From the NCBI GenBank assembly GCA_017577575.1, contig PKRG01000008.1, positions 44,341 through 108,340 on the forward strand: 64,000 bases of DNA, read 5' to 3'. Made by a program: the position numbers and the translations under genes. How positions within the stretch are numbered: the first letter of the stretch is position 1; each line of letters starts with the position of its first letter. The notes under the pieces are model-generated. The model was not told the DNA's origin. It searched no databases and saw nothing but the letters and a program-made list of their open reading frames with translations. Shown here piece by piece: positions 7,641 to 63,857 of this stretch. Source of the stretch: Acidimicrobiia bacterium (lineage in GTDB: Bacteria > Actinomycetota > Acidimicrobiia > Spongiisociales > ZC4RG35).

Positions 7641-8069
7641 ATGGCTCTCGACAGCACCGCCCGCGCCCACTGGGAGGGCGACCTCTTCTCCGGTTCCGGC
7701 ACGGTCAGCCTCGACACCGGCGCCGCCGGTCCCCTCGAAGTGAACTGGAAGGCCCGGGCCGAAGAGCACGGGGGGATCACCAGCCCCGAGGAGCTGATCG
7801 CCGCCGCCCACGCCACCTGCTACTCGATGGCCCTCTCCAACACCCTCGCCAAGGCCGGCTATCCCCCGGCGAGCCTCGACGTGGAGGCCACGGCCACTTT
7901 CGTGCCCGGCACCGGCATCACCCAGATCGTGCTGCGTCTCGACGCCGACGTCCCCAACATCGGAGAGGACGAGTTCCAGCAGGCGGCCCAGACCGCCAAA
8001 GACAACTGCCCGGTCTCCAAGGCCCTGGCCGGCAACGTGGAGATCTCCCTGGAGGCGAACCTCCGCTGA
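7641..8069 (+). CDS. OsmC/Ohr-family peroxiredoxin
   Basis: A 142-residue OsmC-type thiol peroxidase. The two reactive cysteines are visible: Cys60 in AAHATCYSMAL on the central helix and Cys123 in DNCPVSKAL. This is the arrangement that reduces organic hydroperoxides through a disulfide intermediate. An N-terminal strand pair WEGDLFSGSGTVSLDTG and the GGITSPEELIA loop also match. GGAAGGAG lies 6-7 nt before the ATG, and TACCTT about 35 nt upstream is a possible -10. No OhrR regulator lies next to it. The stop is 10 nt from the convergent oppF gene. Confidence 0.92.
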   Translation: MALDSTARAHWEGDLFSGSGTVSLDTGAAGPLEVNWKARAEEHGGITSPEELIAAAHATCYSMALSNTLAKAGYPPASLDVEATATFVPGTGITQIVLRLDADVPNIGEDEFQQAAQTAKDNCPVSKALAGNVEISLEANLR

Positions 8070-8079
8070 AACCCTTCGC

Positions 8080-9168
8080 TCAGGAGGGCGGGGTCTGCTG
8101 GCCCATGGCCCGCGGCCCCGCCCTGAGCAGACAGGCGGCGAGGTGGTTGTCCGACTCCGGGACCTGCATCAGTTGCGGGTCCTCGACGTCGCAGAGGCCC
8201 ATCTGTGCGATCGGACAGCGGGGGTGGAACCGGCACCCCGACGGGGGGTCGATGGGGGAGGGGATCTCCCCCCGAGGCATCGGCTGGGTCCGCCGGTGCT
8301 TGGGGTCGGGCACCGGGACGGCGTCGAGCAGCGCCTGGGTGTAGGGATGGGCGGGGGACCCGTACACCGACTTGAGCGGCCCCACCTCGACGATCCGGCC
8401 CAGATACATGATGGCGATCCGGTCGCACACGTACTTGGCGGTCGCCAAGTCGTGGGTGATGAAGAGGTAGGTGAGGTCGAACTCGTCCTTCAACCTCATC
8501 ATCAGGTCGAGCAGGGCAGACCGGACCGACACGTCGGCCATGGCGATCGGCTCGTCGGCGACGATCAACTCCGGCCGGGTGACCAGGGCGCGGGCGATGA
8601 CGATCCGCTGCCGCTGGCCGCCGGATATCTGGTGGGGGTACTTGTCGGCGTAGTTGGTGGGCGGGTTCATGCCCACCGCCTCCAGCATCTCCAGCACCCG
8701 CTTACGGCGCTGTCCCTCGCTCAGGTTCGGCTCGTGGATCTCCAGCGGATGGGCGATGGCCTGGCCGATCGTCATCCGGGGATTCAGCGAGGCCAGCGGG
8801 TCCTGGAAGATGATCTGCATGCGGGAGCGGAGCCGGCGCATCTCGTCCGGCGAGAGTTGGGACAGGTCCATCCCGTCGAAGAAGACCTTGCCCTCGGTGG
8901 GCTCGAGCAGGTTCAGGACCAGGCGTCCCACCGTCGACTTGCCGGACCCCGACTCGCCGGCGAGCCCGAACACCTCGCCGCGTCGGATCTCGAAGTCGAC
9001 GCCGTCCACGGCCCGCACCGCCGGCTGCTCGCCGCGGTTGAACAGCGAGGCGAGGAACCCCGACTGGAGCGGGAAGTACTTCTTCACCCCGCGCACCTCG
9101 ACGAGCGGCGGGCCCGCCTCGATGCGGTGGGTGGGCGTGGCGACTTGCTCGAGTCTGCTCTCAGGCAC
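8080..9168 (-). CDS. oppF: Oligopeptide ABC transporter ATPase, OppF-like
   Basis: A 362-residue ATPase of the peptide/nickel importer family, last gene of a five-gene opp operon. Walker A GESGSGKSTVGR, the family segment IIFQDPLASLNPRMTIG, signature ISGGQRQRIVIARAL, Walker B ELIVADEPIAMADVS and the H-loop FITHDL are intact. The C-terminal OppD/F tail carries the cysteine motif SGCRFHPRCPIAQMGLCD, usual for a small iron-sulfur or metal site in this family. The ATG overlaps the end of oppD by 8 nt. The Walker B glutamate is followed by PIAMADVS instead of the common PVSALDVS, a mild D-loop change. Confidence 0.92.
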   Translation of the reverse strand: MPESRLEQVATPTHRIEAGPPLVEVRGVKKYFPLQSGFLASLFNRGEQPAVRAVDGVDFEIRRGEVFGLAGESGSGKSTVGRLVLNLLEPTEGKVFFDGMDLSQLSPDEMRRLRSRMQIIFQDPLASLNPRMTIGQAIAHPLEIHEPNLSEGQRRKRVLEMLEAVGMNPPTNYADKYPHQISGGQRQRIVIARALVTRPELIVADEPIAMADVSVRSALLDLMMRLKDEFDLTYLFITHDLATAKYVCDRIAIMYLGRIVEVGPLKSVYGSPAHPYTQALLDAVPVPDPKHRRTQPMPRGEIPSPIDPPSGCRFHPRCPIAQMGLCDVEDPQLMQVPESDNHLAACLLRAGPRAMGQQTPPS

Positions 9169-51144: not shown

Positions 51145-51489
51145 TTGCAGCCGACCGACCGACTGAGCGTCGTCTTTTCAGCTCTGGCCGACCCCACCCG
51201 GCGCGACATCCTGGAACGGCTGTCCAGGGCGAGCGCCACCGTGGGGGAGTTGGCAGCCAACTACGACATGAGCCGGCCCGCGGTCTCCCAGCACCTCGCC
51301 GTCCTCGAACGGGCGGGGCTCATCGAACGGGTCGCCCGGGCGCAGTGGAGGGAGTGCCGGGTCCGGCGGGATGGCTTCGACGAGGCGGCAGCCTGGCTAG
51401 CGCGGCAACGAGCCGCATGGTCCGAGCGCTTCGACCTCCTCGAAGAGCACATTCGACGCCAACGCACGGAGAAGAAGGAGACCGAATGA
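51145..51489 (+). CDS. ArsR-family transcriptional regulator
   Basis: A 114-residue winged-helix repressor: FSALADPTRRDILERLSRA, VGELAANYDMSRPAVSQHL with recognition helix, and VLERAGLIERV. No cysteine pair for metal sensing (CxC) is present. It belongs to the group paired with SRPBCC/AHSA1 genes, and one follows by ATGA overlap. TTG start preceded by AGAGG at about 8 nt. Confidence 0.9.
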   Translation: MQPTDRLSVVFSALADPTRRDILERLSRASATVGELAANYDMSRPAVSQHLAVLERAGLIERVARAQWRECRVRRDGFDEAAAWLARQRAAWSERFDLLEEHIRRQRTEKKETE

Positions 51490-51635
51490 TCGACCTGACC
51501 GCCGGGTTCACCCTGGTGAGGGAGTTCCCGGCCACACCGGAGGAGCTCTGGCGCTTCTGGACCGATCCCGCCGAGGCGACCCACTGGATGCACCCTCGGG
51601 GTTGTTCGGCCGCCTGTCGGCTCGAGACAACGTGA
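51486..51635 (+). pseudogene. SRPBCC/AHSA1-domain gene cut after ~40 codons
   Basis: The first 39 residues (TLVREFPATPEELWRFWTDP, then ATHWMHPRG) match the start of an AHSA1/SRPBCC protein, usually about 150 residues. After HPRG the frame enters the LivG-like sequence and stops ten codons later. The rest of the gene is missing. The start overlaps arsR by ATGA, the normal arrangement for this pair, so the 5' side is intact and the break at about 51600 is real in this sequence. Confidence 0.8.
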
Positions 51636-52066
51636 CTGCGGTCGCCCGGCCCGATGATTTGGACGTCGACGAGTTCGCCGACGAGTGCCTGGGTTGGCTC
51701 GATCTCATCGAGCTCGCCGATGTGCCCGCTGGCGAGTTGCCCTATGGCCTGCAGCGACGGCTCGAGATCGCCCGGGCCCTGGCGACTCGTCCGCGGTACC
51801 TGCTCCTCGACGAGCCGGCGGCGGGGCTCAACGACGTCGAATCCGCCGACCTCGAGAAGCGGATCCGTCACATAGCCAAGGATTCCCGCTTCGGGTGCGG
51901 AGTGCTGATCATCGACCACGACATGCGACTCATCACGTCGGTCTGCGATCGTCTCACGGTCCTCGCCAATGGCCGCACGATCGCCGACGGGTCGCCGGAC
52001 GAGGTCCGCAACCAACCCGAGGTGGTCGAGGCATATCTAGGCAAGAGGAAGGAACCAGGAACGTGA
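51602..52066 (+). pseudogene. LivG-like ABC ATPase lacking its N-terminal half
   Basis: About 154 residues corresponding to the C-terminal two thirds of a branched-chain-amino-acid type ATPase. The reading begins LFGRLSARDNV, which aligns to the position after the Q-loop. Signature is present as LPYGLQRRLEIARAL, Walker B as YLLLDEPAAGLND and the H-loop as LIIDHDM. The Walker A and Q-loop parts, about 75 residues, are absent, so ATP binding should fail. Its stop overlaps the GTG of the next gene (GTGA), the mark of a former intact operon. No livF/H/M genes follow. Confidence 0.85.
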
Positions 52067-53311: not shown

Positions 53312-54271
53312 GTGAAGTTGGCCTTGGCCGGAGACACGATGCTGGGCCGGGCCGTCGCTCACGCCATCGAGACCCGGTCGGCGGCGGCGATCGTCCATCC
53401 CGCCGTCATCGACGCCGTCGCCGACCACGACCTCTTCTTCCTCAACCTCGAGTGCTGCATCTCGACGCGGGGGGAGCGCTGGCCCGATCCCCGCAAACCG
53501 TTCTTCTTCCGGGCCCCGCCCGCGGCCGTGGAGGTCCTGACCCGTCTCGGCGTGGACTGCGTCACCCTCGCCAACAACCACGCCCTCGACTACGGCTACG
53601 AGGCGCTCCTCGACACCATCGACCACCTGACGACCGCCGGCATCGCCGTGGTCGGGGCCGGAGAGGACCTCGCGTCCGCGCGGCGGCCACGGACCCTCGA
53701 AGCCGGCGGCACACGGCTGACGGTGGTCGCCTTCTCCGATCACCCCGCCGACTTCGCCGCCGGGCCGGAAACACCCGGCATCGCCTATGCGGATCTCTCC
53801 GGCGGCGTGCCGGAGTGGGTGCGGAAGGCCGTCGTCGAGTCGGCGGACCCGGTGCTCGTCACCCCCCACTGGGGCCCCAACATGACCGAGGAACCGGTGC
53901 CGAGTGTCCGTCGGGCGGCACGCCAACTGGTGGACGCCGGGGCGACGCTGGTGGCCGGTCACTCGGCCCACGTCTTCCACGGGGTCGCCGGACGGGTCAT
54001 CTACGACATGGGCGACTTCGTCGACGACTACGCCGTCGACCCGGTGCTCCGCAACGACCTCGGGCTGGTGTTCCTCGTCGACCTGGGCCCGACGGGGCCG
54101 GGGCGGATCGAAGCCATACCGATCGCCCTCGACTTCTGCCACACGCGCCTGGCGACAGACGACGAGGTGGATTGGATCGAGCGCCGGTTGCGACGGGCTT
54201 GTGCCGCCATGGGAACGGCAGTCACCCGGACCGGTGACCGGTTCCTGATCGAAGCCGCCGGCGGGCCCTAG
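53312..54271 (+). CDS. CapA-like metallophosphoesterase-fold protein
   Basis: A 319-residue protein of the PgsA/CapA (poly-gamma-glutamate synthesis) family, calcineurin-like fold. LALAGDTMLGRAVAHAI at the N terminus, FFLNLECCIS, TLANNHALDYGYEALLDTI, VTPHWGPNMTE and LVAGHSAHVFHGVAGRVIYD, IYDMGDFVDD are the metal-binding landmarks. Members outside capsule operons have unknown substrates. It lacks a signal peptide or TM helix, so it is likely cytosolic. GTG start with GAGGTGGAAAG. The stop overlaps the convergent baeRF gene by 4 nt. Confidence 0.88.
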   Translation: MKLALAGDTMLGRAVAHAIETRSAAAIVHPAVIDAVADHDLFFLNLECCISTRGERWPDPRKPFFFRAPPAAVEVLTRLGVDCVTLANNHALDYGYEALLDTIDHLTTAGIAVVGAGEDLASARRPRTLEAGGTRLTVVAFSDHPADFAAGPETPGIAYADLSGGVPEWVRKAVVESADPVLVTPHWGPNMTEEPVPSVRRAARQLVDAGATLVAGHSAHVFHGVAGRVIYDMGDFVDDYAVDPVLRNDLGLVFLVDLGPTGPGRIEAIPIALDFCHTRLATDDEVDWIERRLRRACAAMGTAVTRTGDRFLIEAAGGP

Positions 54272-55395
54272 CTCGTGAAGGGGTACCTGAGGATCGCCGC
54301 CAGCTCGCCTCCGCCGGGGACGTCTTGGCGGCGCACCGCCACGATCCGCCCGCCGTTCATCCACACCCGGCGGGCGATCTCGTCGACCACCGAGTAGGCG
54401 GAGGCGTCGTCGACCTCGGCGAACTCGACCGCCCCCTCGTCGTCGACGAAACCCGGCACCACGGCGTCGATGTCGACGAACAGCGTGTCCACCATCCCGA
54501 ACGTCGCCGCCCGGGCGATGTTGGCGACGTCCGTGCCGGCCCGGCCCTCGGCCATCCTGCGCTCGAAGATGTCGACGAGGGCGGCGAGCTGGATGGCATA
54601 GAGCTCGTCGAGGATCGACCGGGCCCGCTCCGCCAGCTCGGTGTCGGGGGTGTCTTCGGGATTCCCCTCTATCCCCGTGGCGGCGAGGAAGGGATAGCGG
54701 CTCACCGAGCGGTATATCGACTGCAGCGGCTCGGCCGCGGCGAGGATCAACGGCACATCCTGGCCGGCGGTCGCCGATCGCACCGCGTCGTCCACGCGAC
54801 GGCAATAGACGCGGAGATGGCTCCGTTCAGCCATGGAGCTCTGGGTCTTGCCCCTCGGCGCGCGGTCGTCGACATGCGCTATCGGCACCGAGTCGGCCAC
54901 ACCTTCCGGCAGCTCGCCCAGTTCGACCTCGGAGGGGCCGCCCTCCGGCAGCACTTCCAGCAGCTTCACCGAGTTCTGGGAGATGGCGAGCACCAGGGCC
55001 ACCTGGGGGAAGGTGATCGACCGGAGCAGGGGACCGAGGTGGAAGCGGTCGGCGACGTCGACGATCTCGGTGAGGCGGTTCGGCAACCGGTAGGTCACCA
55101 GCCATGCGGGCGTCGCGAACACAGCCAGGCTCCTCGCCTGGTACCGCCAGAAGAAGTCGTCCTCGACCAGGTCGGAGAACTGCTCCTCCACGGCGGCGAC
55201 GACGCGCTTCTCGGTCCCGGCCTCTTCGAGCTGGCTGACCGCCTCGTCGACGAGGTTCTTGAGTGCGATTCGTTCCGCCTGCCCCGGGCTGACCGGGTCG
55301 GTGGGCAGATAGACGGACACGCAAGTCTCGCCGACCGTGTCGAAGAGCCGGCTGACTTGGTCGTGGGTGGGTATGTCGACGTGGAGTGGCATCAC
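54268..55395 (-). CDS. eRF1/Pelota-like protein (baeRF family)
   Basis: A 375-residue protein with the three-part layout of bacterial archaeo-eukaryotic release factor-like proteins: an N-terminal domain starting HDQVSRLFDTVGETCVSVYLPT, a middle domain (FPQVALVLAISQNSVKLLEV), and a C-terminal L7Ae/eRF1-3-like domain (from about residue 260: LVDIFERRMAEGRAGTDVANI, with TFGMVDTLFVDID). No GGQ peptide-release motif is seen. The family is proposed to act at ribosomes in rescue or in countering such factors; experimental data are scarce. GAGGAG precedes two tandem ATG codons. It is last gene of the run from 59189, 25 nt after rtcA. Confidence 0.78.
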   Translation of the reverse strand: MMPLHVDIPTHDQVSRLFDTVGETCVSVYLPTDPVSPGQAERIALKNLVDEAVSQLEEAGTEKRVVAAVEEQFSDLVEDDFFWRYQARSLAVFATPAWLVTYRLPNRLTEIVDVADRFHLGPLLRSITFPQVALVLAISQNSVKLLEVLPEGGPSEVELGELPEGVADSVPIAHVDDRAPRGKTQSSMAERSHLRVYCRRVDDAVRSATAGQDVPLILAAAEPLQSIYRSVSRYPFLAATGIEGNPEDTPDTELAERARSILDELYAIQLAALVDIFERRMAEGRAGTDVANIARAATFGMVDTLFVDIDAVVPGFVDDEGAVEFAEVDDASAYSVVDEIARRVWMNGGRIVAVRRQDVPGGGELAAILRYPFTS

Positions 55396-55420
55396 ATCTC
55401 CTCGTTGGCGTGTGGCCGGG

Positions 55421-56461
55421 TCATGATTGGACCAGCACCCCGGCCTCGGTCTGTTCTGTGGCCAGCCCCGAGCGGAAGAACTTCCGCAGGACGGCCAGGT
55501 TCGTTTCGAAGTGGGAGGTGGGCGAGGAGGTGAGGAACCGGCTTCCCGGCGCCCGCACCAGAGGGAGCAGCAGCTGGTCGGCGAGGTGCGGCCCGACCGG
55601 TGCCCCCGCCTCCAGATACCGTTCCACCTGGTCGGCCACCTCCGCAGCCACCTCCTCGGCGGGCAGACCGCGGCGGCCGAAGCCCGTGAACACCTCGGTG
55701 ACGTGGTCGCATTCGACGGCCACCAGGACCGCGTTCCCGGGCCCGTCGGCTTCCATCTCCTCGGCGATGAGCGACTCGGGAGGCAACGCCAGCCGCCTCT
55801 GCAGGACCGCCAGCTCCCGATGGGCGATCGACAACGGCAGCCGAGAAACGACCGCCCGCGCCCGCATCGAACGCACCGAGCCGCGCTCGGTCAGCTCGAG
55901 AGGTCTCCAGCCAGCTGGCCGAATCGTGGCGATGATCCGCCCACCACCCGCCGGATGGAATCCGGGCCGCTCCAGTTGGACGTCGGCGTCCACCCCCATC
56001 CGGCGCAACAGCGGCAAATACGCCGACTCCAGGAACTCGAACGGTGGGGCGCCGAGGTTGTGGGTCCCGCCGGTGACCGTCACCGTGGAAGGCCCACCGG
56101 CTTCGGCGAGCGGCAAGAGCACGGTCTGGAGCACGAGTGTGGCGCTTCCCGCCGTGCCGACGTCGAAACCGTATTCTCCCGCCTGCACCCGTCCGGGACG
56201 GAAGACCAGCCGCCCCGAGTGGAGGCGGGCCCCCTCCACGGATGCATTCGCGATCTCGGCGGCGGCGCGTACGGCGGTGAGATGCTGGGCGAGCAGGCCG
56301 GGGCGACGCCGATTCGCCCGGATCCTCGTGATCTCGAACGGGGTCCCGGTCAAAAGCGACGCCGCCAGGGAGGTGCGCAGGATCTGGCCGCCTCCCTCTC
56401 CGGCCGAGCCGTCGACGAGGATCGGCTCGTCACGGACGCGTTCTTCTGCGGGTGTCGGCAT
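55421..56461 (-). CDS. rtcA: RNA 3'-terminal phosphate cyclase
   Basis: A 346-residue RtcA. It converts RNA 3'-phosphate to a 2',3'-cyclic phosphate using ATP. The signature DGSAGEGGGQILRTSLAASL at residues 15-34, PFEITRIRANRRRPGLLAQH, GTHNLGAPPFEFLE and the nucleophile histidine in VGPHLADQLLLPL, are intact, as is SHFETNLAVLRKFF at the end. No rtcB or rtcR is in the window. ATG at 56461 is preceded by AGAGGGAA; a GTG at 56482 would overlap the B12-gene stop. Confidence 0.93.
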   Translation of the reverse strand: MPTPAEERVRDEPILVDGSAGEGGGQILRTSLAASLLTGTPFEITRIRANRRRPGLLAQHLTAVRAAAEIANASVEGARLHSGRLVFRPGRVQAGEYGFDVGTAGSATLVLQTVLLPLAEAGGPSTVTVTGGTHNLGAPPFEFLESAYLPLLRRMGVDADVQLERPGFHPAGGGRIIATIRPAGWRPLELTERGSVRSMRARAVVSRLPLSIAHRELAVLQRRLALPPESLIAEEMEADGPGNAVLVAVECDHVTEVFTGFGRRGLPAEEVAAEVADQVERYLEAGAPVGPHLADQLLLPLVRAPGSRFLTSSPTSHFETNLAVLRKFFRSGLATEQTEAGVLVQS

Positions 56462-56481
56462 GGGCACTTTCCCTCTACCCA

Positions 56482-58098
56482 CTAGTCGAGCATCGCGATC
56501 CGTGTGGCTTCGTCGAGTTTGTCTCCGGTCTCGGGGTGCACGGCGTCACAGCCGCCGTCCACGACGGTGACGGTGGCGCCTCGTGCGGCCGGGTTGCTGA
56601 CCAGGTACGGGGCGTCGAACAGGCCGGTCCGCACCACCGCCCCCAGTTGCTCGGCGTCGCCTTCCATCGCCCCAGGGAACCGTTCGGCTACGACGTCGAG
56701 CAGGTACTCTGCCTCCTCGATCAGTCGGTCCCGCCTGGCGGCGACTGCGGGGTCGGCCAGCGGGTCGGGTAGGCCGAGCAGCGCGTCGTCCACGACCTGG
56801 CGCACCAGGGTGCAGGACGTGATGAGCTCGTCCGCTTCGATGGCGTGGTCGGCCTCCGTGTGGCCCACCACGTGGAGGATGTCGGGCTCGAGCGCCATGG
56901 CGGTCCGGGTGGCGGAGGCGAGCTGGCCTAGAGCCCGCACCTCATCGGACGGCAGCGAGAACAGTCCCGCCCGTAGCTCGCGCAGCACCGTCAGCCCGCT
57001 GGCGCGCCGTTGGACGACGGCGTGCATCGCCTCCATCTTGGCGATGTCCATCGCCGGCGAGATCCCCGCCGGGGTGTTGAGCATCATCTGGAGCACGTAG
57101 GTGTCGACTCCGGCCGCCGCCGAGAGTCGGGCCGCCAGCCCGGCGGCTGCCACCTGGATCGTGTCCGAGGCGGCGCGCAGGCCCCACTGGTTCTGGTCGT
57201 TGCGCTCCACCGGGATGCCGTTGGCGGCGCTCCAGGAGACGAGCTCCTGGTTCTCGGCGATCGCGTCCTCGAGGGACCTCTCGGAGCGGCCATCCAGCTC
57301 CGAGTACCAGAACACGGGGATCGCACACCAGGCGTTGCGTATGGTCTCGTGGAGCATCCGGCCGAACCGGACCAGGTCGTTGGTGCCGGCGTAACAGCGG
57401 AGGAGCGGGTAGTTGCCCCGCTGGGCCGCTTCGTATAGGAGCCGGAAGTCGTCGGGGGTGCGGACGGGGACACCTCCGGCGCCGTCCTGGGAGGGGTCCA
57501 TGCGCTCGGGGCGGAAGAAGTGCTCCTGGGCGTTCTGGTCGGGTGCCAGCGAGATGACGTCGACGACTCCGGCTTCGGCGATCCTTCGGATCCCCTCGGC
57601 GGTCCGCTCCAGCGACGGGAGGCCGAAGTGATGGCGTATCAACGGACGCCGCCCGCTCATGCGACGCCGAGACAGCAGGTCCCGCGGGCGCTCCGTCGTC
57701 GACTCGGCCGCGTTCTCTTCGCCGGTCAGCCATTCGTCGATGTCCTCGTCGGGGCGGTCCCCGAACACGCGGTCGAACACACCGGACCGGCGGGCGACCT
57801 CGGCCACCGGAGACGGACCGCCGAACCAGGTGCGGATCCCGCTGAGCCCCTCGCGGCGGAGAGCGGCGTCGAGCTCGCCGAAGAGTCTCTCGGCCGCCTC
57901 CGGTGTGAGCCGATACGACACGGCCAGGATCTCGGGTCGCTGTCGCTTCGCCTCTTCGACCAGCCGCTCGACGGGGGTGGCGGGGCCCAGGAACACGGCG
58001 CGGTACCCGTGGCGACGGCACGCCGCCAGGAAGTTGAGGATCCCGGCGACGTGGACGCAGTCACCGATCGCGGCGCCGAGGACGAGCTTTTCGGTCAT
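56482..58098 (-). CDS. Cobalamin-binding domain + TIM-barrel protein (mutase/methyltransferase-like)
   Basis: A 538-residue protein. Residues 1-115 look like a B12-binding Rossmann domain: IGDCVHVAGILNFLAA near the N terminus, ILAVSYRLTPEAA and TWFGGPSPVAEVA. The histidine motif is D-x-x-H-x-x-G, one residue longer than canonical D-x-H-x-x-G. Residues ~150-420 resemble the TIM barrel of glutamate-mutase-E-like enzymes (VISLAPDQNAQEHFFRPER, CYAGTNDLVRFGRMLHETIR, ERNDQNQWGLRAASDTIQVA). The C-terminal part is helical (ASATRTMALEPD region). The reaction is not determinable. ATGA overlap with the octopine-dehydrogenase-like gene. Confidence 0.7.
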   Translation of the reverse strand: MTEKLVLGAAIGDCVHVAGILNFLAACRRHGYRAVFLGPATPVERLVEEAKRQRPEILAVSYRLTPEAAERLFGELDAALRREGLSGIRTWFGGPSPVAEVARRSGVFDRVFGDRPDEDIDEWLTGEENAAESTTERPRDLLSRRRMSGRRPLIRHHFGLPSLERTAEGIRRIAEAGVVDVISLAPDQNAQEHFFRPERMDPSQDGAGGVPVRTPDDFRLLYEAAQRGNYPLLRCYAGTNDLVRFGRMLHETIRNAWCAIPVFWYSELDGRSERSLEDAIAENQELVSWSAANGIPVERNDQNQWGLRAASDTIQVAAAGLAARLSAAAGVDTYVLQMMLNTPAGISPAMDIAKMEAMHAVVQRRASGLTVLRELRAGLFSLPSDEVRALGQLASATRTAMALEPDILHVVGHTEADHAIEADELITSCTLVRQVVDDALLGLPDPLADPAVAARRDRLIEEAEYLLDVVAERFPGAMEGDAEQLGAVVRTGLFDAPYLVSNPAARGATVTVVDGGCDAVHPETGDKLDEATRIAMLD

Positions 58099-59189
58099 GA
58101 GCCGTACCCGTAGCTCGCTACCTGGCGGATCTCCGCCGGGCTCAACCCGGCCAGACCCAGGCGCTCCAGAGTGCGCCCTCTGCTCCAGAAGTTGGTCTGG
58201 TGGACGATCCCCGCCAGGGTGATCACCGACTCGATCGCCCGGGGGTTCAGGCCGAATTGACGCCCCGCCGACGCCATCGGCACCATGCTCATCGGGACGT
58301 CCTCGAGCATGTAGCGGTTCTCCATCGTCGGAGGCGCCGAAATCCCCCGGTAACCCTCGTTCGCCTGGATCGCCTCGTAGAGGTCCCGTCCTTGGGCCCG
58401 GTACGCCACCATCAGCCAGTCACGCATCGAGCGCACTTCGACGCCGAGCAGGTTGGCGACGGCCATCCGCTCCCGGTCCACCGCTTCCAGCACGTGGGAC
58501 ACGCCCGGGCTCACGCCGTCGATGTAGAACTCGAAGCGTCCCTGGGTGTTCTCGATGCGAGCCGTGTTGAACAACGTGATCGCCGGGTGCACCACCGCGC
58601 CGACGTTGGCGAAGCTCGTGTCGAGGGTGCACTCGGTGGGTTGGAACTGGGGATACCAGGGCTCGAGTCGGGCGATCACCTCTTCGGTTCGGGTGCAGGG
58701 GATGGCCGCGACGGGCACGGATCGCTTCACGCGCATGATCCGTGACTGGGCGGGACCGGAGCTGCGGGAGGCGAAGATGAAGGTTCCGGCTTCGGCTACG
58801 ACGACCCCGTCGGGAGCGCCTTGGTCCAGAGCTTCGTGGAGGAACTCGAGAGCGCCGAAGGTGCGACCCGGGTTGAGCACGACGATGTGGCCGTCGCGCA
58901 GGTGCGGGGCGCACTTGCGGGCGACGTCTCGGTGCCCGAATGCCGGAACACACACCATCACCAGCGTGGCGCCGGCCAGCGCCTCCCCGATGTCCGATGT
59001 CACCAGTCGGATCTTCCCGAATCCCGTGATCTCGCCTTCCAGGTCGACCCCGCCACGGTCTGCCACCTCGGCGACGTGTTCGGGGGTGCGATTCCACAGC
59101 ACCACGTCGGCTCCGAGCCGCCCCAGGTCACCGGCGAGGGCACGGCCGGCATGGCCTGCGCCCAGCACTGCTATCGATCCGTTGCTCAT
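58095..59189 (-). CDS. NAD/NADP octopine/nopaline dehydrogenase family protein
   Basis: A 364-residue opine-dehydrogenase-type enzyme. N-terminal Rossmann IAVLGAGHAGRALAGDLG, middle VVLNPGRTFGALEFLHEAL, VVVAEAGTFIFASRSSGP, and the C-terminal Octopine_DH domain with the catalytic His in NVGAVVHPAITLFNTARIE. The family reduces an imine between an amino acid and a keto acid, or oxidises it. AAGGATC lies 7 nt before the ATG. First gene of a minus-strand run with the B12 protein, RtcA and baeRF. Confidence 0.88.
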   Translation of the reverse strand: MSNGSIAVLGAGHAGRALAGDLGRLGADVVLWNRTPEHVAEVADRGGVDLEGEITGFGKIRLVTSDIGEALAGATLVMVCVPAFGHRDVARKCAPHLRDGHIVVLNPGRTFGALEFLHEALDQGAPDGVVVAEAGTFIFASRSSGPAQSRIMRVKRSVPVAAIPCTRTEEVIARLEPWYPQFQPTECTLDTSFANVGAVVHPAITLFNTARIENTQGRFEFYIDGVSPGVSHVLEAVDRERMAVANLLGVEVRSMRDWLMVAYRAQGRDLYEAIQANEGYRGISAPPTMENRYMLEDVPMSMVPMASAGRQFGLNPRAIESVITLAGIVHQTNFWSRGRTLERLGLAGLSPAEIRQVASYGYGS

Positions 59190-59484
59190 CTCGATCCTTT
59201 CACTGCGCCGAGGCTCCTCGCGGGACGCCTCCTCAGACGCCACCTTTCCGGTTCCAATGGCGTGAACGGATCGGATGGCTGACCCGGGTTCCTTCTCGGG
59301 CGCTTCCTTCCATGTGCCGTCTCGCCGCTCACAGCCCCTTTTCAAAGACTGTGCCTCCGGGCGTTCGCCTTGTTGAGGGCCTAAGGTCCTGGAGAGGGGA
59401 GGGCCTTCCGCAGTTCCGGGCAGAGATCGGGTCTGGTGCCCCTGGCGGGATCGCCGATCCGGGTTGGAGACTCCCACGAGAGAC
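59190..59484. other. Divergent spacer between the ODH-like and PRT-hydrolase genes
   Basis: No gene of convincing character is visible in these 295 nt on either strand; open frames are shadows. It should hold the two divergent promoters. TAAGGT near 59381 is one candidate -10 on the plus strand. Confidence 0.5.
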
Positions 59485-60762
59485 ATGTTCAGGGACAGGA
59501 CGGAAGCCGGCCGCCGGCTGGCGCAGCATCTCGGGCATCTCAGAGACGAAGACGTCGTCGTGCTCGGTCTCCCCCGCGGCGGTGTCCCGGTCGCCTACGA
59601 GGTGGCGCGGGCCCTCGACGCTCCACTCGACGTGATCGTCGTTCGCAAGCTCGGCTTTCCATCCCAGCCCGAGCTGGCGATGGGGGCGATCGGCGAGGAC
59701 GGTGTCCGAGTCCTGAACGAGGCGTTGGTGACTCCCGAGGTCGCCTCGTCCCCAGCGTTCGCCGCCGTGGAGACGCGAGAACGGCACGAGCTGGCGCGAC
59801 GGGTCGAGATGTTCCGCCGGGGACGGCCCCGGGTGCCCCTGGAGGGGCGAGTGGCCGTGATCGTCGACGACGGGATCGCCACCGGCTCCACCGTCAGAGC
59901 CGCTGCCGAGGTCGCCCGGGCGCTGGGCGCCCGACGCGTGGTGGCCGCGGCGCCGGTCGCTCCCCCGGAGGTGGAGCGGAGGCTCGGTGCGTCCGTCGAC
60001 GAGGTGGTCGTGGCGGAAAGGCCAGAGGTCTTCTTCGCCATCGGCCAGTTCTACGCCGACTTCCGGCAGGTCTCGGACGCCGAGGTGGCCGAGCTGCTCG
60101 GTCGGGCCGCGTCCGAAGGCGATGCGTCTAGGGCTGCGATCGACACCGAGATCGACGTGGAGGGCGCCGGCCACCGCCGCGGTCACCTGACCATCCCCCA
60201 GGAAGCGATGGGGCTGGTCGTGTTCGCACACGGGTCGGGAAGCAGCCGCCACAGCCCCCGCAACCGCGCGGTCGCCCGGGCCTTGAACCGGGCCGGGTTG
60301 GGCACGTTGCTCTTCGATCTGCTGACCCCGGAGGAGGGCCAAGACCGGGATCGTGTCTTCGACATCCCGCTCCTGGCAGAGCGGCTGGTCGACGCCTCAC
60401 GCGGGGTGATCCGGGAATGGCCGGATCTCCCGTTGGGGCTTTTCGGGGCGTCGACGGGAGCGGCGGCCGCCTTGGTCGCCTCGGTGGAGATGGACAACTC
60501 GGTTCGAGCCGTCGTGTCCCGGGGTGGAAGGCCCGACCTGGCGGCTTCCCACCTGCGGCGGGTCACGGCGCCGACGCTGCTCGTCGTCGGCGCCAACGAT
60601 CCCGTCGTCTTGGACCTGAACCGCCAGGCCCAGGCCGAGCTGCGTTGCGAGAACCGTCTGGAGGTGGTCCCCGGGGCGGGACACCTCTTCGAGGAGCCCG
60701 GGACGCTCGAGCGTGTCGCCGAGCTCGCCATCGGGTGGTTCTCGGACCACCTGGCCCCCTAG
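59485..60762 (+). CDS. Phosphoribosyltransferase / alpha-beta-hydrolase fusion protein
   Basis: A 425-residue two-domain protein. Residues 1-210 are a type I PRTase with VLGLPRGGVPVAYEVARAL, KLGFPSQPELAMGAIGEDG and the PRPP loop VAVIVDDGIATGSTVRAA. Residues ~225-425 are a dienelactone-hydrolase-like alpha/beta hydrolase with FAHGSGSSRHSPRNR, nucleophile elbow FGASTGAAAAL, and the late motif PGAGHLFEEPGTLE with the catalytic His. This exact fusion is widespread in environmental bacteria; its substrate is unknown. ATG with GAGAG upstream; TTG at 59464 is an alternative. Confidence 0.88.
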   Translation: MFRDRTEAGRRLAQHLGHLRDEDVVVLGLPRGGVPVAYEVARALDAPLDVIVVRKLGFPSQPELAMGAIGEDGVRVLNEALVTPEVASSPAFAAVETRERHELARRVEMFRRGRPRVPLEGRVAVIVDDGIATGSTVRAAAEVARALGARRVVAAAPVAPPEVERRLGASVDEVVVAERPEVFFAIGQFYADFRQVSDAEVAELLGRAASEGDASRAAIDTEIDVEGAGHRRGHLTIPQEAMGLVVFAHGSGSSRHSPRNRAVARALNRAGLGTLLFDLLTPEEGQDRDRVFDIPLLAERLVDASRGVIREWPDLPLGLFGASTGAAAALVASVEMDNSVRAVVSRGGRPDLAASHLRRVTAPTLLVVGANDPVVLDLNRQAQAELRCENRLEVVPGAGHLFEEPGTLERVAELAIGWFSDHLAP

Positions 60763-60938: not shown

Positions 60939-63857
60939 TCACCCGGGGCCCGGCAAGACGTAGGCGGGGAGCTCCTGGACCACTCCGGGGGAGGCGTCCC
61001 GCCCGAGCTGCTGGTCCCAGTTGGCCCCCCAGCACAAGACGGCCCGCAGATCCGTCAGCGCGCAGGTGTGCGAGTCGCCGGCGGCGAGCTGGACCACCCC
61101 TTCCAGGGGGGTCGTCCCGGACGGATCCATCACATACCTGGGAAGGGGTGAATCCGATCTATCCCCGGTACCCAGCTGGCCATCCACCCCTTGACCCCAA
61201 CACACGGCTTCCTCGGATTCGAGCCGGGCACAGGTGTGGTTGGTTCCGGCTGCGAGAGACGTGACCCCGGCCAGCGGGGCGGTGCCCTCGGGGTTCCTCA
61301 CTTCGACGAGCTGCGGTTGGATTTCGCCGGTACCGGCTCCCAGCTGCCCGGCGATGTCCGACCCCCAACACAGGACCCGTCCGTCTTCGGTCGAGGCACA
61401 GCTGTGGCTGGCTCCGAGGCTCAGGTCCGTGACCCCGGTGAGAGGACCGTCCGTGTCGAGGACCGGCTGCGCCGTCGGGACGGGTGCGCTCGAAGCGCCG
61501 GTGCCCAGCTGGCCCTGGAAGTTGTTGCCCCAGCAGTAGACGCTCGTGTCGGAGACGGCGCAGGCGTGCGCCGCGCCCGCCGCCACCAGAGTGACATCGG
61601 TCAGCGGGCTCGTCCCGTCCGGGCCGAGGACCCGGGTCGGGAGGGGCGAGAACCCCGCCGTCTCGCCGTTGCCGACCTTCCCCTGCGAGTGGTTGCCCCA
61701 GCAGTAGACGTCGCCGGGATCGACGATGGCGCAGGCGAACTGGTGACCGACCGCGATATGGGTCACGCCCTCCAGCGGTCCTTCGCCGTCCGGGTCCAAG
61801 ACCGGTTGGGGAACCGGTGCTGGAGCCGTGTCCGTGGATCCGTTGCCCAGCCGTCCATCGAATTGGGCTCCCCAGCAGTAGGCATTCCCATCGGTGGTCA
61901 GGGCACAGGTGTGCCCGTCACCGCCGTCGATCTGCGCCACCGCCGTCAGAAGTCCCTCGCCCTGGGGGGCGACGACGGCGGCGGGCAGCGCAGCCTTGGG
62001 GCCGAGGTCGCCCCCTGTCTGGCCGTTCCCTATCTGGCCGGTGTTGTTGCGACCCCAGCAGTAGACCCGGTCTCGGGGATCGAACAACCCGGTGGCGACG
62101 CAGGTGTGGGCCCACCCGGCACCGATGTGGAGCGGGGCGTAGACGTCGTAGTAGAGGTCCGCGCTCACCTCTGCCGCCGGGTCCTCCGCGTCCCTCACCG
62201 TGACTCGAATCGGGTCCTGGAAGGGTGAAGCGTCCTTGATCGCCGGATCGGCGGGGTCGTTGACGATGGCGCCGTCGTCCTCGTCGAAGACGAGCCCTTC
62301 GGGCAACCCGGTCACGGCCCACTCGTACGATCCGGACCCGCCGTAGGCGGCGAGGGTGGCCCGATACGACTCGAGCGACCGGAGGGTCGGAAGCGACGGA
62401 GTGAGCAGTCTCAATGGGGGCTCACCTTCGAGCGGCGACCCGGGGACGACCCGCGTCGGCCGAGTCGCTTCGGTGCCGAAGCCGGTGTCGCCTTTTCCGA
62501 CTTGCCCCGCCCAGTTGCCGCCCCAACACCACACCCGCGAGCTCGTGTCGATTCCGCAAGTGTGGAACTCGCCGGCGTCGAGGGTGGCGAACGCGGGCGC
62601 AGCCAAGACCGGGAACGGTTCGTGGAGCTCGTTGCCCATCGTCCCGATCCCGAGCTGGCCGTAGTTGTTGGAGCCCCAGCACAGCGCCGAGGTTCCCTCG
62701 AGCGCACAGGTGAAATGCCCGTCGCTTCCCACGACCTCGTCGAACAAGTGGGCTCCCGGCAGTCGGGTGGGACCGGAGACGGGATCGTCGTGGTCGAGAC
62801 CCAGCTGTCCCGATTCGTTCTCGCCGAAACACCACGTGGCGCCGGTGTCGTCGATGGCGCAGGTGTGGTTCTGGCCGGTGGCGATGGAGACGAAGTCCAC
62901 GTCGGATTCGACTCTCACCGGTGAGACCGCCCGCGGCTCGCCGATGGCGCCGAGCTGACCGTGGGAGTTGCGCCCCCAACACCACGCTGCGCCTGTTGCG
63001 TCGACACCGCAGACGTGGCTTCCGCCGACGGCCAGGTCGACGACCTCCAGACCGGAGCCGACCAGCTGCGGCTCGTCCCGGGAGGTGTCGTAACCCGAGG
63101 TGCCGATTCCGAGTTGTCCGTCGAGGTTGCTCCCCCAGCACCAGACGAGGAGGTCCGAGTCGACGGCACAGTTGTAGGCGAATCCGCTGTCGATGGCGAC
63201 GAACTCGTGGTCGCCGCTCACGGGAACCGGGACGGGGCTGCCGGTGGGGCGGTCGCCGCTGCCCAGCTGCCCGGCGTCGTTCTTGCCCCAGCACCACGCG
63301 CGGCCGCTCGCGTCGAGCGCGCAGGTGTGCTCCCCGCCTGCGGTGATGGCGGTGAACACCTGGTCGGAGAGGACCCGTACCGGCTTCGCGGAGTGCTCCA
63401 GTCGCCAACCCTCACCGAGTTGGCCATGGGTGTTGTCTCCCCAGCACCAGGCGGCGCCTTCCTCGTCGAGCGCACACGAGTGGTAGGCGCCGGCGGCCAC
63501 GGCCACGGGTTTGGTGAAGGAGAGGGCGATGGTGGCCGTAGTCGCCGAACCCGCCGCGTCGGTCACGGACACCGTCAGAGCCTGGTCCCTGGTCTCGCCC
63601 ACGGGGAGGGCATCGACATCGAGGGAGACGGATCCGTCGGTTCGCACGTCGAGCCACGCTGGGCCGGCTTCGACGGTCCAGCGGTACGGAGGCACGCCGT
63701 CGGTCGCTTCGAGTCGCGCCTGGTACTCGGTGGTGAGAAGCGGGATGCCGCTGAGCTGCTCCGTCACGATCCTCAAGCCGGCCTCACCGGGCGGGGCGGT
63801 GGTCGGTGGTGGGGGCGTAGGGGGTGTGGCGGGGGGGGGACCAGGGGGGGCGTCCAC
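60939..63857 (-). CDS. RCC1-repeat secreted-type protein (two seven-repeat blocks)
   Basis: At least 972 residues; the true N terminus, probably a signal peptide, is lost in unreliable sequence beyond 63857. Order: Pro/Thr-rich linker; Ig/He_PIG-like domain (about 28-115, PPYRWTVEAG); seven RCC1 repeats each with the pattern GxxHTCAL...WCWG.N..GQLG; a second He_PIG-like domain (about 475-560, GSGSYEWAVTGLPEGLVFDED); seven more RCC1 repeats to the end. Every repeat carries a pair of cysteines (C-A-x and W/Y-C-W-G). RCC1 repeats form seven-bladed propellers, so two complete propellers are predicted. A role in adhesion or in binding a surface polymer is possible. Confidence 0.85.
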   Translation of the reverse strand: MDAPPGPPPATPPTPPPPTTAPPGEAGLRIVTEQLSGIPLLTTEYQARLEATDGVPPYRWTVEAGPAWLDVRTDGSVSLDVDALPVGETRDQALTVSVTDAAGSATTATIALSFTKPVAVAAGAYHSCALDEEGAAWCWGDNTHGQLGEGWRLEHSAKPVRVLSDQVFTAITAGGEHTCALDASGRAWCWGKNDAGQLGSGDRPTGSPVPVPVSGDHEFVAIDSGFAYNCAVDSDLLVWCWGSNLDGQLGIGTSGYDTSRDEPQLVGSGLEVVDLAVGGSHVCGVDATGAAWCWGRNSHGQLGAIGEPRAVSPVRVESDVDFVSIATGQNHTCAIDDTGATWCFGENESGQLGLDHDDPVSGPTRLPGAHLFDEVVGSDGHFTCALEGTSALCWGSNNYGQLGIGTMGNELHEPFPVLAAPAFATLDAGEFHTCGIDTSSRVWCWGGNWAGQVGKGDTGFGTEATRPTRVVPGSPLEGEPPLRLLTPSLPTLRSLESYRATLAAYGGSGSYEWAVTGLPEGLVFDEDDGAIVNDPADPAIKDASPFQDPIRVTVRDAEDPAAEVSADLYYDVYAPLHIGAGWAHTCVATGLFDPRDRVYCWGRNNTGQIGNGQTGGDLGPKAALPAAVVAPQGEGLLTAVAQIDGGDGHTCALTTDGNAYCWGAQFDGRLGNGSTDTAPAPVPQPVLDPDGEGPLEGVTHIAVGHQFACAIVDPGDVYCWGNHSQGKVGNGETAGFSPLPTRVLGPDGTSPLTDVTLVAAGAAHACAVSDTSVYCWGNNFQGQLGTGASSAPVPTAQPVLDTDGPLTGVTDLSLGASHSCASTEDGRVLCWGSDIAGQLGAGTGEIQPQLVEVRNPEGTAPLAGVTSLAAGTNHTCARLESEEAVCWGQGVDGQLGTGDRSDSPLPRYVMDPSGTTPLEGVVQLAAGDSHTCALTDLRAVLCWGANWDQQLGRDASPGVVQELPAYVLPGPG

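What the first reader, a model, noticed from the sequence alone, without database searches (positions are those of the whole stretch)
54268..59189. Four-gene run: opine-dehydrogenase-like, B12 protein, RtcA, baeRF
Seen: four minus-strand genes with an ATGA overlap, a 20-nt gap and a 25-nt gap, an operon-like layout. Known: RtcA modifies RNA 3' ends; baeRF proteins are eRF1/Pelota relatives without a settled function; octopine-dehydrogenase and B12-mutase families are metabolic. Inference: a metabolic pair is co-transcribed with an RNA-end enzyme and a ribosome-acting factor. No RtcB, RtcR or ligase accompanies RtcA. If the order recurs in other genomes, it suggests a link between cobalamin metabolism and translation rescue or RNA repair that I do not know to be described.
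Basis: partly seen in the sequence, partly recalled or inferred. Interest (0 to 1): 0.72.

Follow-up and report, generated by a model that had tools for sequence, protein, structure and literature searches.

The report
Composite operon: two unrelated gene pairs
Four neighbouring bacterial genes really do form an operon-like run, but two of them are a metabolic pair found together in many phyla without the others, and the other two (an RNA-end enzyme and a ribosome-hibernation-type protein) belong to a stress and RNA-repair neighbourhood that is only partly new.

Summary
The run is real: ODH and B12 genes overlap by 4 nt, then gaps of 20 and 25-28 nt. The four-gene order was found in no other genome searched. 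The opine-dehydrogenase-like and B12 genes are a self-standing module: 79 of 80 B12 loci from many phyla carry the dehydrogenase, none carries RtcA or a baeRF of this type, and 30 have an asparagine-synthase-like gene directly downstream. RtcA is nearly absent from the class sample (of 395: own genome, one divergent and two marginal matches) and was probably acquired. The baeRF is a distant homologue of Balon, a ribosome hibernation factor whose genes are already reported near RtcB. Two flanking genes tie the RNA half to a recurring Rtc neighbourhood: a PGA_cap-family gene (53312-54271), seen elsewhere beside RtcB or RtcA, and a phosphoribosyltransferase-hydrolase (59464-60762), seen elsewhere near RtcB. 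The own RtcB and archease lie on another contig. The best reading is an operon-like stretch in which a metabolic pair sits inside an RNA-repair and hibernation island. A cobalamin-translation link is not supported; a PGA_cap-Rtc-baeRF association is the most interesting remainder.

The parts
58095..59189 (-). Opine (octopine/CENDH-like) dehydrogenase gene, first gene of the run
   Evidence: PF02317 1.3e-42; closest solved structure 1bg6, N-(1-D-carboxylethyl)-L-norvaline dehydrogenase, E 5.5e-72 over residues 5-357; present in 79 of 80 B12 loci
56482..58098 (-). Cobalamin-binding, glutamate-mutase-like protein; 4-nt overlap with the dehydrogenase gene
   Evidence: PF02310 1.4e-11; B12-binding in 45 of 45 alignment members (window plus 44 loci), MutE family at E<=0.1 in 21 of 45; His16 and Gly19 at least 90% conserved
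55421..56461 (-). RtcA, RNA 3'-terminal phosphate cyclase (ATG start; GTG at 56482 possible)
   Evidence: NF003246 418 bits over cut-off 352, TIGR03399 356 over 250; E. coli RtcA structures, E about 5e-85, residues 19-342
54268..55392 (-). baeRF / Balon-type ribosome-associated protein
   Evidence: PF18855 3.6e-41 and PF18851 3.5e-38; match over residues 16-370 to 8rd8_B, E 2.8e-12, 8RD8 being a deposition of the Balon paper; no GGQ
53312..54271 (+). PGA_cap-family protein, convergent with baeRF (4-nt overlap of the two ends); recurrent neighbour of Rtc genes elsewhere
   Evidence: PF09587 1.3e-57; PGA_cap genes beside or near RtcB or RtcA in G001, G012, G700, G416, G432
59464..60762 (+). Phosphoribosyltransferase-alpha/beta-hydrolase fusion, divergent from the run
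   Evidence: PF00156 9e-16 plus hydrolase families; homologues within about 6 kb of RtcB in 12 of 61 RtcB loci

Best explanation
The run is a composite operon of two functional units. Unit 1 (ODH + B12 protein) is a stand-alone, probably mobile metabolic module: a one-chain glutamate-mutase-like cobalamin enzyme rearranges an amino-acid carbon skeleton, and the opine-type dehydrogenase performs NAD(P)-linked chemistry on its substrate or product. Family membership and pairing are shown; the reaction is inferred. Unit 2 (RtcA + Balon-type baeRF) belongs to a stress neighbourhood flanked by a PGA_cap-family protein and a phosphoribosyltransferase-hydrolase. The baeRF would occupy the A site of idle ribosomes, and RtcA would turn 3'-phosphates of cleaved RNA into 2',3'-cyclic phosphates, so that the RtcB-archease pair encoded elsewhere can reseal them. 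This is inferred from homology. Co-transcription would follow from position, not from a shared pathway.
For: ODH in 79 of 80 B12 loci from many phyla, with RtcA and baeRF in 0 of 80; 30 of 80 have an asparagine-synthase-like gene directly downstream. RtcA in 0 of 59 relatives; in the class sample of 395 own, one divergent and two marginal; 4 clear other carriers and 2 marginal of 396 in the phylum sample. baeRF matches Balon over nearly its whole length. baeRF beside RtcB-archease in G001, G416 and G432. PGA_cap in 4 of 61 RtcB loci (one weak) and 2 of 5 other RtcA loci, against 0 of 55 baeRF loci away from RtcB; PRTase in 12 of 61 against 2 of 55 (Fisher p 0.007 for PRTase, 0.07 for PGA_cap, not corrected for relatedness). 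Balon genes reported near RtcB (PMC10901736, passages).
Against: baeRF and RtcA were seen adjacent only in this genome. Of 23 phylum-sample genomes (own included) with a PF18855 baeRF and a listed RtcB place, only 2 have them together. In G008 and G022 the ODH-B12 pair abuts RtcB, so all three pair-bearing genomes in the sample of 60 have an Rtc gene beside it, which a purely positional story must call a single ancestral insertion or a coincidence; L024, without an Rtc gene, speaks for coincidence. The baeRF of G001 matches baeRF families 3 and 7, not 11. The Balon-type equivalog cut-off is not reached (134 of 330 bits). The PGA_cap difference is not significant by itself.
Confidence: 0.62

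Rival explanations
1. Everything is chance neighbourhood: the pair, the acquired RtcA and the baeRF happen to be adjacent and share no process, not even RNA repair with hibernation.
For: The four-gene order was seen only here; RtcA is sporadic; tight co-directional spacing is common in this window, 18 of 34 pairs; baeRF and RtcB are together in only 2 of 23 phylum-sample genomes with listed places.
Against: PGA_cap and PRTase genes like those flanking the run recur near Rtc genes, and baeRF recurs beside RtcB-archease in 3 genomes.
Confidence: 0.25
2. One reading: cobalamin-dependent metabolism is functionally tied to RNA repair or translation rescue, for instance by making a metabolite or an RNA modification needed by the Rtc system or the hibernating ribosome.
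For: Pair next to RtcA in the window and next to RtcB in G008 and G022.
Against: 77 of 80 pair loci hold no RtcA, RtcB, archease, baeRF, PRTase or PGA_cap; two of the three exceptions are G008 and G022 themselves and the third (L089) has only a PGA_cap gene about 2 kb upstream. The seven other actinobacterial pair loci (L024, L026-L031), one of them 70% identical, are among the 77.
Confidence: 0.05
3. The RNA half is a defence or counter-nuclease system (RtcA with a ribosome-acting factor, by analogy with PrfH-RtcB), spread by horizontal transfer.
For: Sporadic RtcA; release-factor-RtcB pairs are proposed conflict systems (PMC6514570, passages).
Against: No mobile-element or defence family among the 11 window proteins scanned with Pfam; the baeRF lacks GGQ and resembles a hibernation factor, not a release factor. 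No PADLOC scan was made.
Confidence: 0.07

Closest known systems
Balon (AOC03_06830) ribosome hibernation factors / baeRF families 8 and 11
   Same: Near full-length alignment to the Balon chain 8rd8_B; no GGQ; Rtc genes as neighbours here and in some relatives
   Different: Below the NCBIfam Balon-type equivalog cut-off; neighbour is RtcA instead of RtcB or RaiA
rtcBA RNA-repair operon of enterobacteria
   Same: Bona fide RtcA; RtcB present in the genome
   Different: RtcB is on another contig, next to an archease-like gene; no RtcR was seen at the locus; RtcA sits with a baeRF and a metabolic pair
DosR-regulon genes Rv2629 (Balon homologue), Rv2630, Rv2631 (RtcB) and Rv0571c (phosphoribosyltransferase) of M. 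tuberculosis
   Same: The same kinds of gene are in one dormancy regulon there (PMC5309233, passages; Rv2629 as Balon homologue PMC10901736; Rv2630 being an archease is recalled)
   Different: Compared by gene content from papers only; RtcA and the B12 pair were not named there in the passages seen
N-(1-D-carboxylethyl)-L-norvaline dehydrogenase (1bg6) and octopine dehydrogenase
   Same: ODH matches 1bg6 over residues 5-357
   Different: Paired with a cobalamin protein; substrate unknown
Glutamate mutase (MutS + MutE), D-ornithine 4,5-aminomutase
   Same: B12-binding domain; weak MutE similarity in the C-terminal part
   Different: Single chain, B12 domain at the N-terminus; the window protein is below the MutE cut-off

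Membership tests
RtcA (RNA 3'-terminal phosphate cyclase) | Family model above curated cut-off | tested here: met
   NF003246 418.5 over 352 bits; TIGR03399 355.6 over 250
RtcA (RNA 3'-terminal phosphate cyclase) | Nucleophilic histidine (E. coli His309, label recalled) | tested here: met
   The histidine of the CHLLTN stretch of 3kgd aligns with the histidine of SHFETN in the window protein; that this is His309 is recalled
rtcBA(R) RNA-repair operon | rtcA adjacent to rtcB | tested here: not met
   RtcB at G000:C11, window is C55
rtcBA(R) RNA-repair operon | rtcR beside it or in the genome | tested here: inconclusive
   No RtcR among the neighbouring genes scanned; the genome was not searched for it
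baeRF / Balon hibernation factors | baeRF Pfam model above cut-off | tested here: met
   PF18855 141 bits over 27.2
baeRF / Balon hibernation factors | NCBIfam Balon-type equivalog cut-off | tested here: not met
   NF052287 134 bits, cut-off 330; so Balon-like, not filed as the Balon equivalog
baeRF / Balon hibernation factors | Absence of a GGQ release motif | tested here: met
   No GGQ in the translation
baeRF / Balon hibernation factors | Binding to the ribosomal A site | not testable with these tools
   Needs cryo-EM or sedimentation
Octopine/opine dehydrogenases | PF02317 domain plus NAD-binding domain | tested here: met
Glutamate-mutase-like cobalamin enzymes | B12-binding domain with conserved lower-ligand His (H-x-x-G, motif recalled) | tested here: met
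   PF02310 in 45 of 45; H16 and G19 in the list of at least 90% conserved positions
Glutamate-mutase-like cobalamin enzymes | MutE catalytic barrel | tested here: inconclusive
   16 bits, cut-off 26.6, in the window protein; E<=0.1 in 21 of 45 members, best 3.6e-9; no PDB match to the barrel; structure prediction not available
Conserved four-gene operon as proposed | Same order in other genomes | tested here: not met
   0 of 59 relatives, 0 of 80 B12 loci

The most novel reading that the evidence does not exclude
In these Actinomycetota a modular RNA-repair and ribosome-hibernation island exists whose parts recombine around RtcA or RtcB-archease: a Balon-type baeRF, a PGA_cap-family protein acting as an RNA-end phosphoesterase rather than in capsule synthesis, and a phosphoribosyltransferase-hydrolase. 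In this window RtcA stands where RtcB stands elsewhere, giving a baeRF-RtcA unit.
Probability: 0.22. Interest if true: 0.6.

Novelty: new variant of a known kind. Interest (0 to 1): 0.36.

Why it matters
It separates two things that looked like one. A widespread cobalamin-opine pair (often with an asparagine-synthase-like partner), for which my paper searches listed no description, is worth biochemistry of its own. The RNA half adds RtcA, PGA_cap and PRTase as testable partners to the reported Balon-RtcB neighbourhood. It also shows that a tight gene run in one genome is no evidence of a shared pathway.

Tried and rejected
The four-gene conserved operon was tested by four searches of the same 60 genomes (own plus 59 relatives) and rejected. 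A general baeRF-RtcB linkage in the phylum was tested: only 2 of 23 baeRF genomes with a listed RtcB place have them together, so it is not general for this baeRF type. One search cut its list of places, and 8 further baeRF genomes have only weak RtcB-like matches whose places were not shown. Searches scored only the best few candidates per genome, so second copies may be missed. Promoter and terminator scans found nothing (uninformative here). A plasmid search with RtcA gave 74 records, all below 60% identity, so no donor. PDB search of the B12 alignment did not reach a barrel. Literature: searches for an opine-cobalamin-asparagine-synthase system (1 paper, 8 of 17 listed), for Balon or hibernation with RtcA (10 of 83 listed, RtcA count 0 in those ten) and for PGA_cap with Rtc genes (10 of 80 listed) showed no paper that joins these; unlisted papers were not seen.

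Limits: alignment A2 holds the window and 44 of 80 B12 loci; L031, whose B12 gene is broken by a frame change, is among the 36 left out. The 61 RtcB loci (own genome included) are not a random sample: relatives, genomes picked earlier and the top of the phylum list, with several from one genus. The 55 baeRF control loci leave out the window, the three loci with RtcB, and 8 of the 51 places that were not fetched. Loci are cut at contig ends. Gene calls in GC-rich loci are from simple scripts.
Full report
Observation. The window is G000:C55:44341-108340 of a 2.87-Mb, 57-contig genome. baeRF carries a GAGGAG, and RtcA an AGGGAAAG, just upstream of the start codon. GC content of the four (0.675-0.705) is close to that of the window (0.69). 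Such spacing is common here: 18 of 34 co-directional neighbour pairs in the window lie 30 nt or less apart by a simple caller.

The metabolic pair. In 59 relatives the pair is found in 2 (G008, G022; one genus; 68-75% identity). A scan of 84,980 species genomes with an alignment of three B12 proteins, using only two short peptide patterns, found 92 relatives, 80 kept, in actinobacterial, Bacteroidota, Thermoanaerobacter/Tepidanaerobacter, methanogen, Planctomycetota, Armatimonadota, Spirochaetes and other records. ODH is in 79 of 80 loci, the exception (L058) beginning at the contig edge; in 75 it lies directly upstream on the same strand. RtcA and baeRF are in 0 of 80. In 30 of 80 an asparagine-synthase-like gene follows directly, in L033 it precedes directly, and in L093 it lies about 2 kb upstream. 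Of these 32 proteins, 15 show MAGI and 7 MCG at the start, so the glutaminase cysteine is often missing (its role is recalled). The B12 protein has a B12-binding domain in 45 of 45 alignment members, and similarity to the MutE chain of glutamate mutase in 21 of 45 at E 0.1 or better. ODH is closest to N-(1-D-carboxylethyl)-L-norvaline dehydrogenase 1bg6. Two searches of the paper library for such a system showed none in what was listed. So the pair is the conserved unit. In the seven other actinobacterial loci (L024, L026-L031) it has no Rtc, baeRF, PRTase or PGA_cap gene nearby; by eye their neighbours differ, except that L026 and L031, and L028 and L030, share some.

RtcA. It is a standard RtcA. 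It is present in 0 of 59 relatives. The class sample of 395 holds the own genome, one divergent match (G588, 36% identity) and two marginal ones. In 396 phylum genomes 7 match: own, G432, G065, G205, G416 clearly (G416 in pieces at a contig edge), and two marginally. Horizontal acquisition is the likely reason (inference). RtcB is in the genome on C11, with an archease-like gene beside it.

baeRF. Best Pfam families are baeRF 11 and 8. The only solved structure matched at a significant E-value is 8rd8_B (E 2.8e-12, residues 16-370), named in the PDB list as a chemotaxis protein; 8RD8 is one of the depositions of the Balon paper. The NCBIfam match to the AOC03_06830 (Balon) family stays below its cut-off. 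There is no GGQ. Helena-Bueno et al. 2024 (PMC10901736; passages read; author name recalled) report Balon genes in stress operons, most often next to RaiA, and name RtcB among common neighbours. Burroughs and Aravind 2019 (PMC6514570; passages; author names recalled) link baeRF to HPF and PrfH to RtcB. RtcA was not named with baeRF in the passages I read.

A recurring Rtc neighbourhood. Two genes beside the run that the finding does not list proved informative. A PGA_cap-family gene (53312-54271, +) meets baeRF end to end, and a phosphoribosyltransferase-hydrolase gene (59464-60762, +) diverges from ODH. In G001 (same family) the order is PGA_cap, baeRF, archease, RtcB. In G416 it is baeRF-archease-RtcB on one contig and RtcA-PGA_cap on another. 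In G432 it is baeRF, RtcB, archease, PRTase on one contig, and PGA_cap about 2 kb from RtcA on another. In G027 RtcB abuts the PRTase. In G012 PGA_cap lies about 0.5 kb from RtcB, and in G700 1.6 kb. Pfam confirms PGA_cap in G001, G012, G416, G432 and G700, and archease in G416, G022 and G005. Counted with HMMs built here, on six-frame translations: 61 RtcB loci (662 kb) hold archease in 52, PRTase in 12, PGA_cap in 4 (G607 weak, 56 bits), baeRF in 3, B12-ODH in 2. Fifty-five baeRF loci (622 kb) hold RtcB in 0, RtcA in 0, PRTase in 2 and PGA_cap in 0. Fisher p is 0.007 for PRTase and 0.07 for PGA_cap, with related genomes counted apart, so these are indications only. Counter-evidence: of 23 phylum-sample genomes (own included) with PF18855 baeRF and a listed RtcB place, only 2, both of family f28, have them within 5 kb. 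Among 9 relatives with both genes, only G001 does. M. tuberculosis keeps Rv2629 (a Balon homologue), Rv2630, RtcB (Rv2631) and a phosphoribosyltransferase (Rv0571c) in one dormancy regulon (PMC5309233, passages); that Rv2630 is an archease and that Rv0571c has the fusion architecture are recalled.

What stays unexplained. In G008 and G022 the B12 gene ends stop to stop with RtcB. With the window, all three pair-bearing genomes in the sample of 60 have an Rtc gene next to the pair. This may be one ancestral insertion into the Rtc neighbourhood.

Conclusion. Shown: layout, families, pairing of ODH with B12 across phyla, absence of the four-gene order elsewhere in what was searched, recurrence of PGA_cap and PRTase near Rtc genes. 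Inferred: one transcript, horizontal origin of RtcA, Balon-like action of the baeRF, reactions of the pair. The finding is best read as a composite operon; its RNA half is a variant of the reported Balon/Rtc stress neighbourhood.

Noticed in passing
L023-L102 (e.g. L035:11669-13003): The ODH-B12 pair is followed directly in 30 of 80 loci by an asparagine-synthase-like gene; of 32 such proteins 15 show MAGI and 7 MCG at the start, so the glutaminase half may often be inactive.
   Followed up: partly
L039, L052, L062, L064, L067, L078, L082, L083, L101: A D-Ala-D-Ala-ligase-like gene (by eye, no family scan) lies near the pair in 9 loci of Firmicutes-type records (cluster 3).
   Followed up: no
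L003:71-1492 and L004:3124-4545: In two genomes of a sister genus RtcB abuts the B12 gene, convergent, with archease beside RtcB.
   Followed up: partly
window 51486-52066: A short AHSA1-like start (by eye) runs into a truncated branched-chain amino-acid ABC ATPase (154 aa, C-terminal part only): a deletion scar or an assembly join.
   Followed up: no
window 60939-63857 (-): A 972-aa protein with 11 RCC1 repeat stretches lies next to the PRTase gene.
   Followed up: no
L031:7683-9190: The B12 gene of one Acidimicrobiaceae MAG is split by a frame break near 7980-8105.
   Followed up: no
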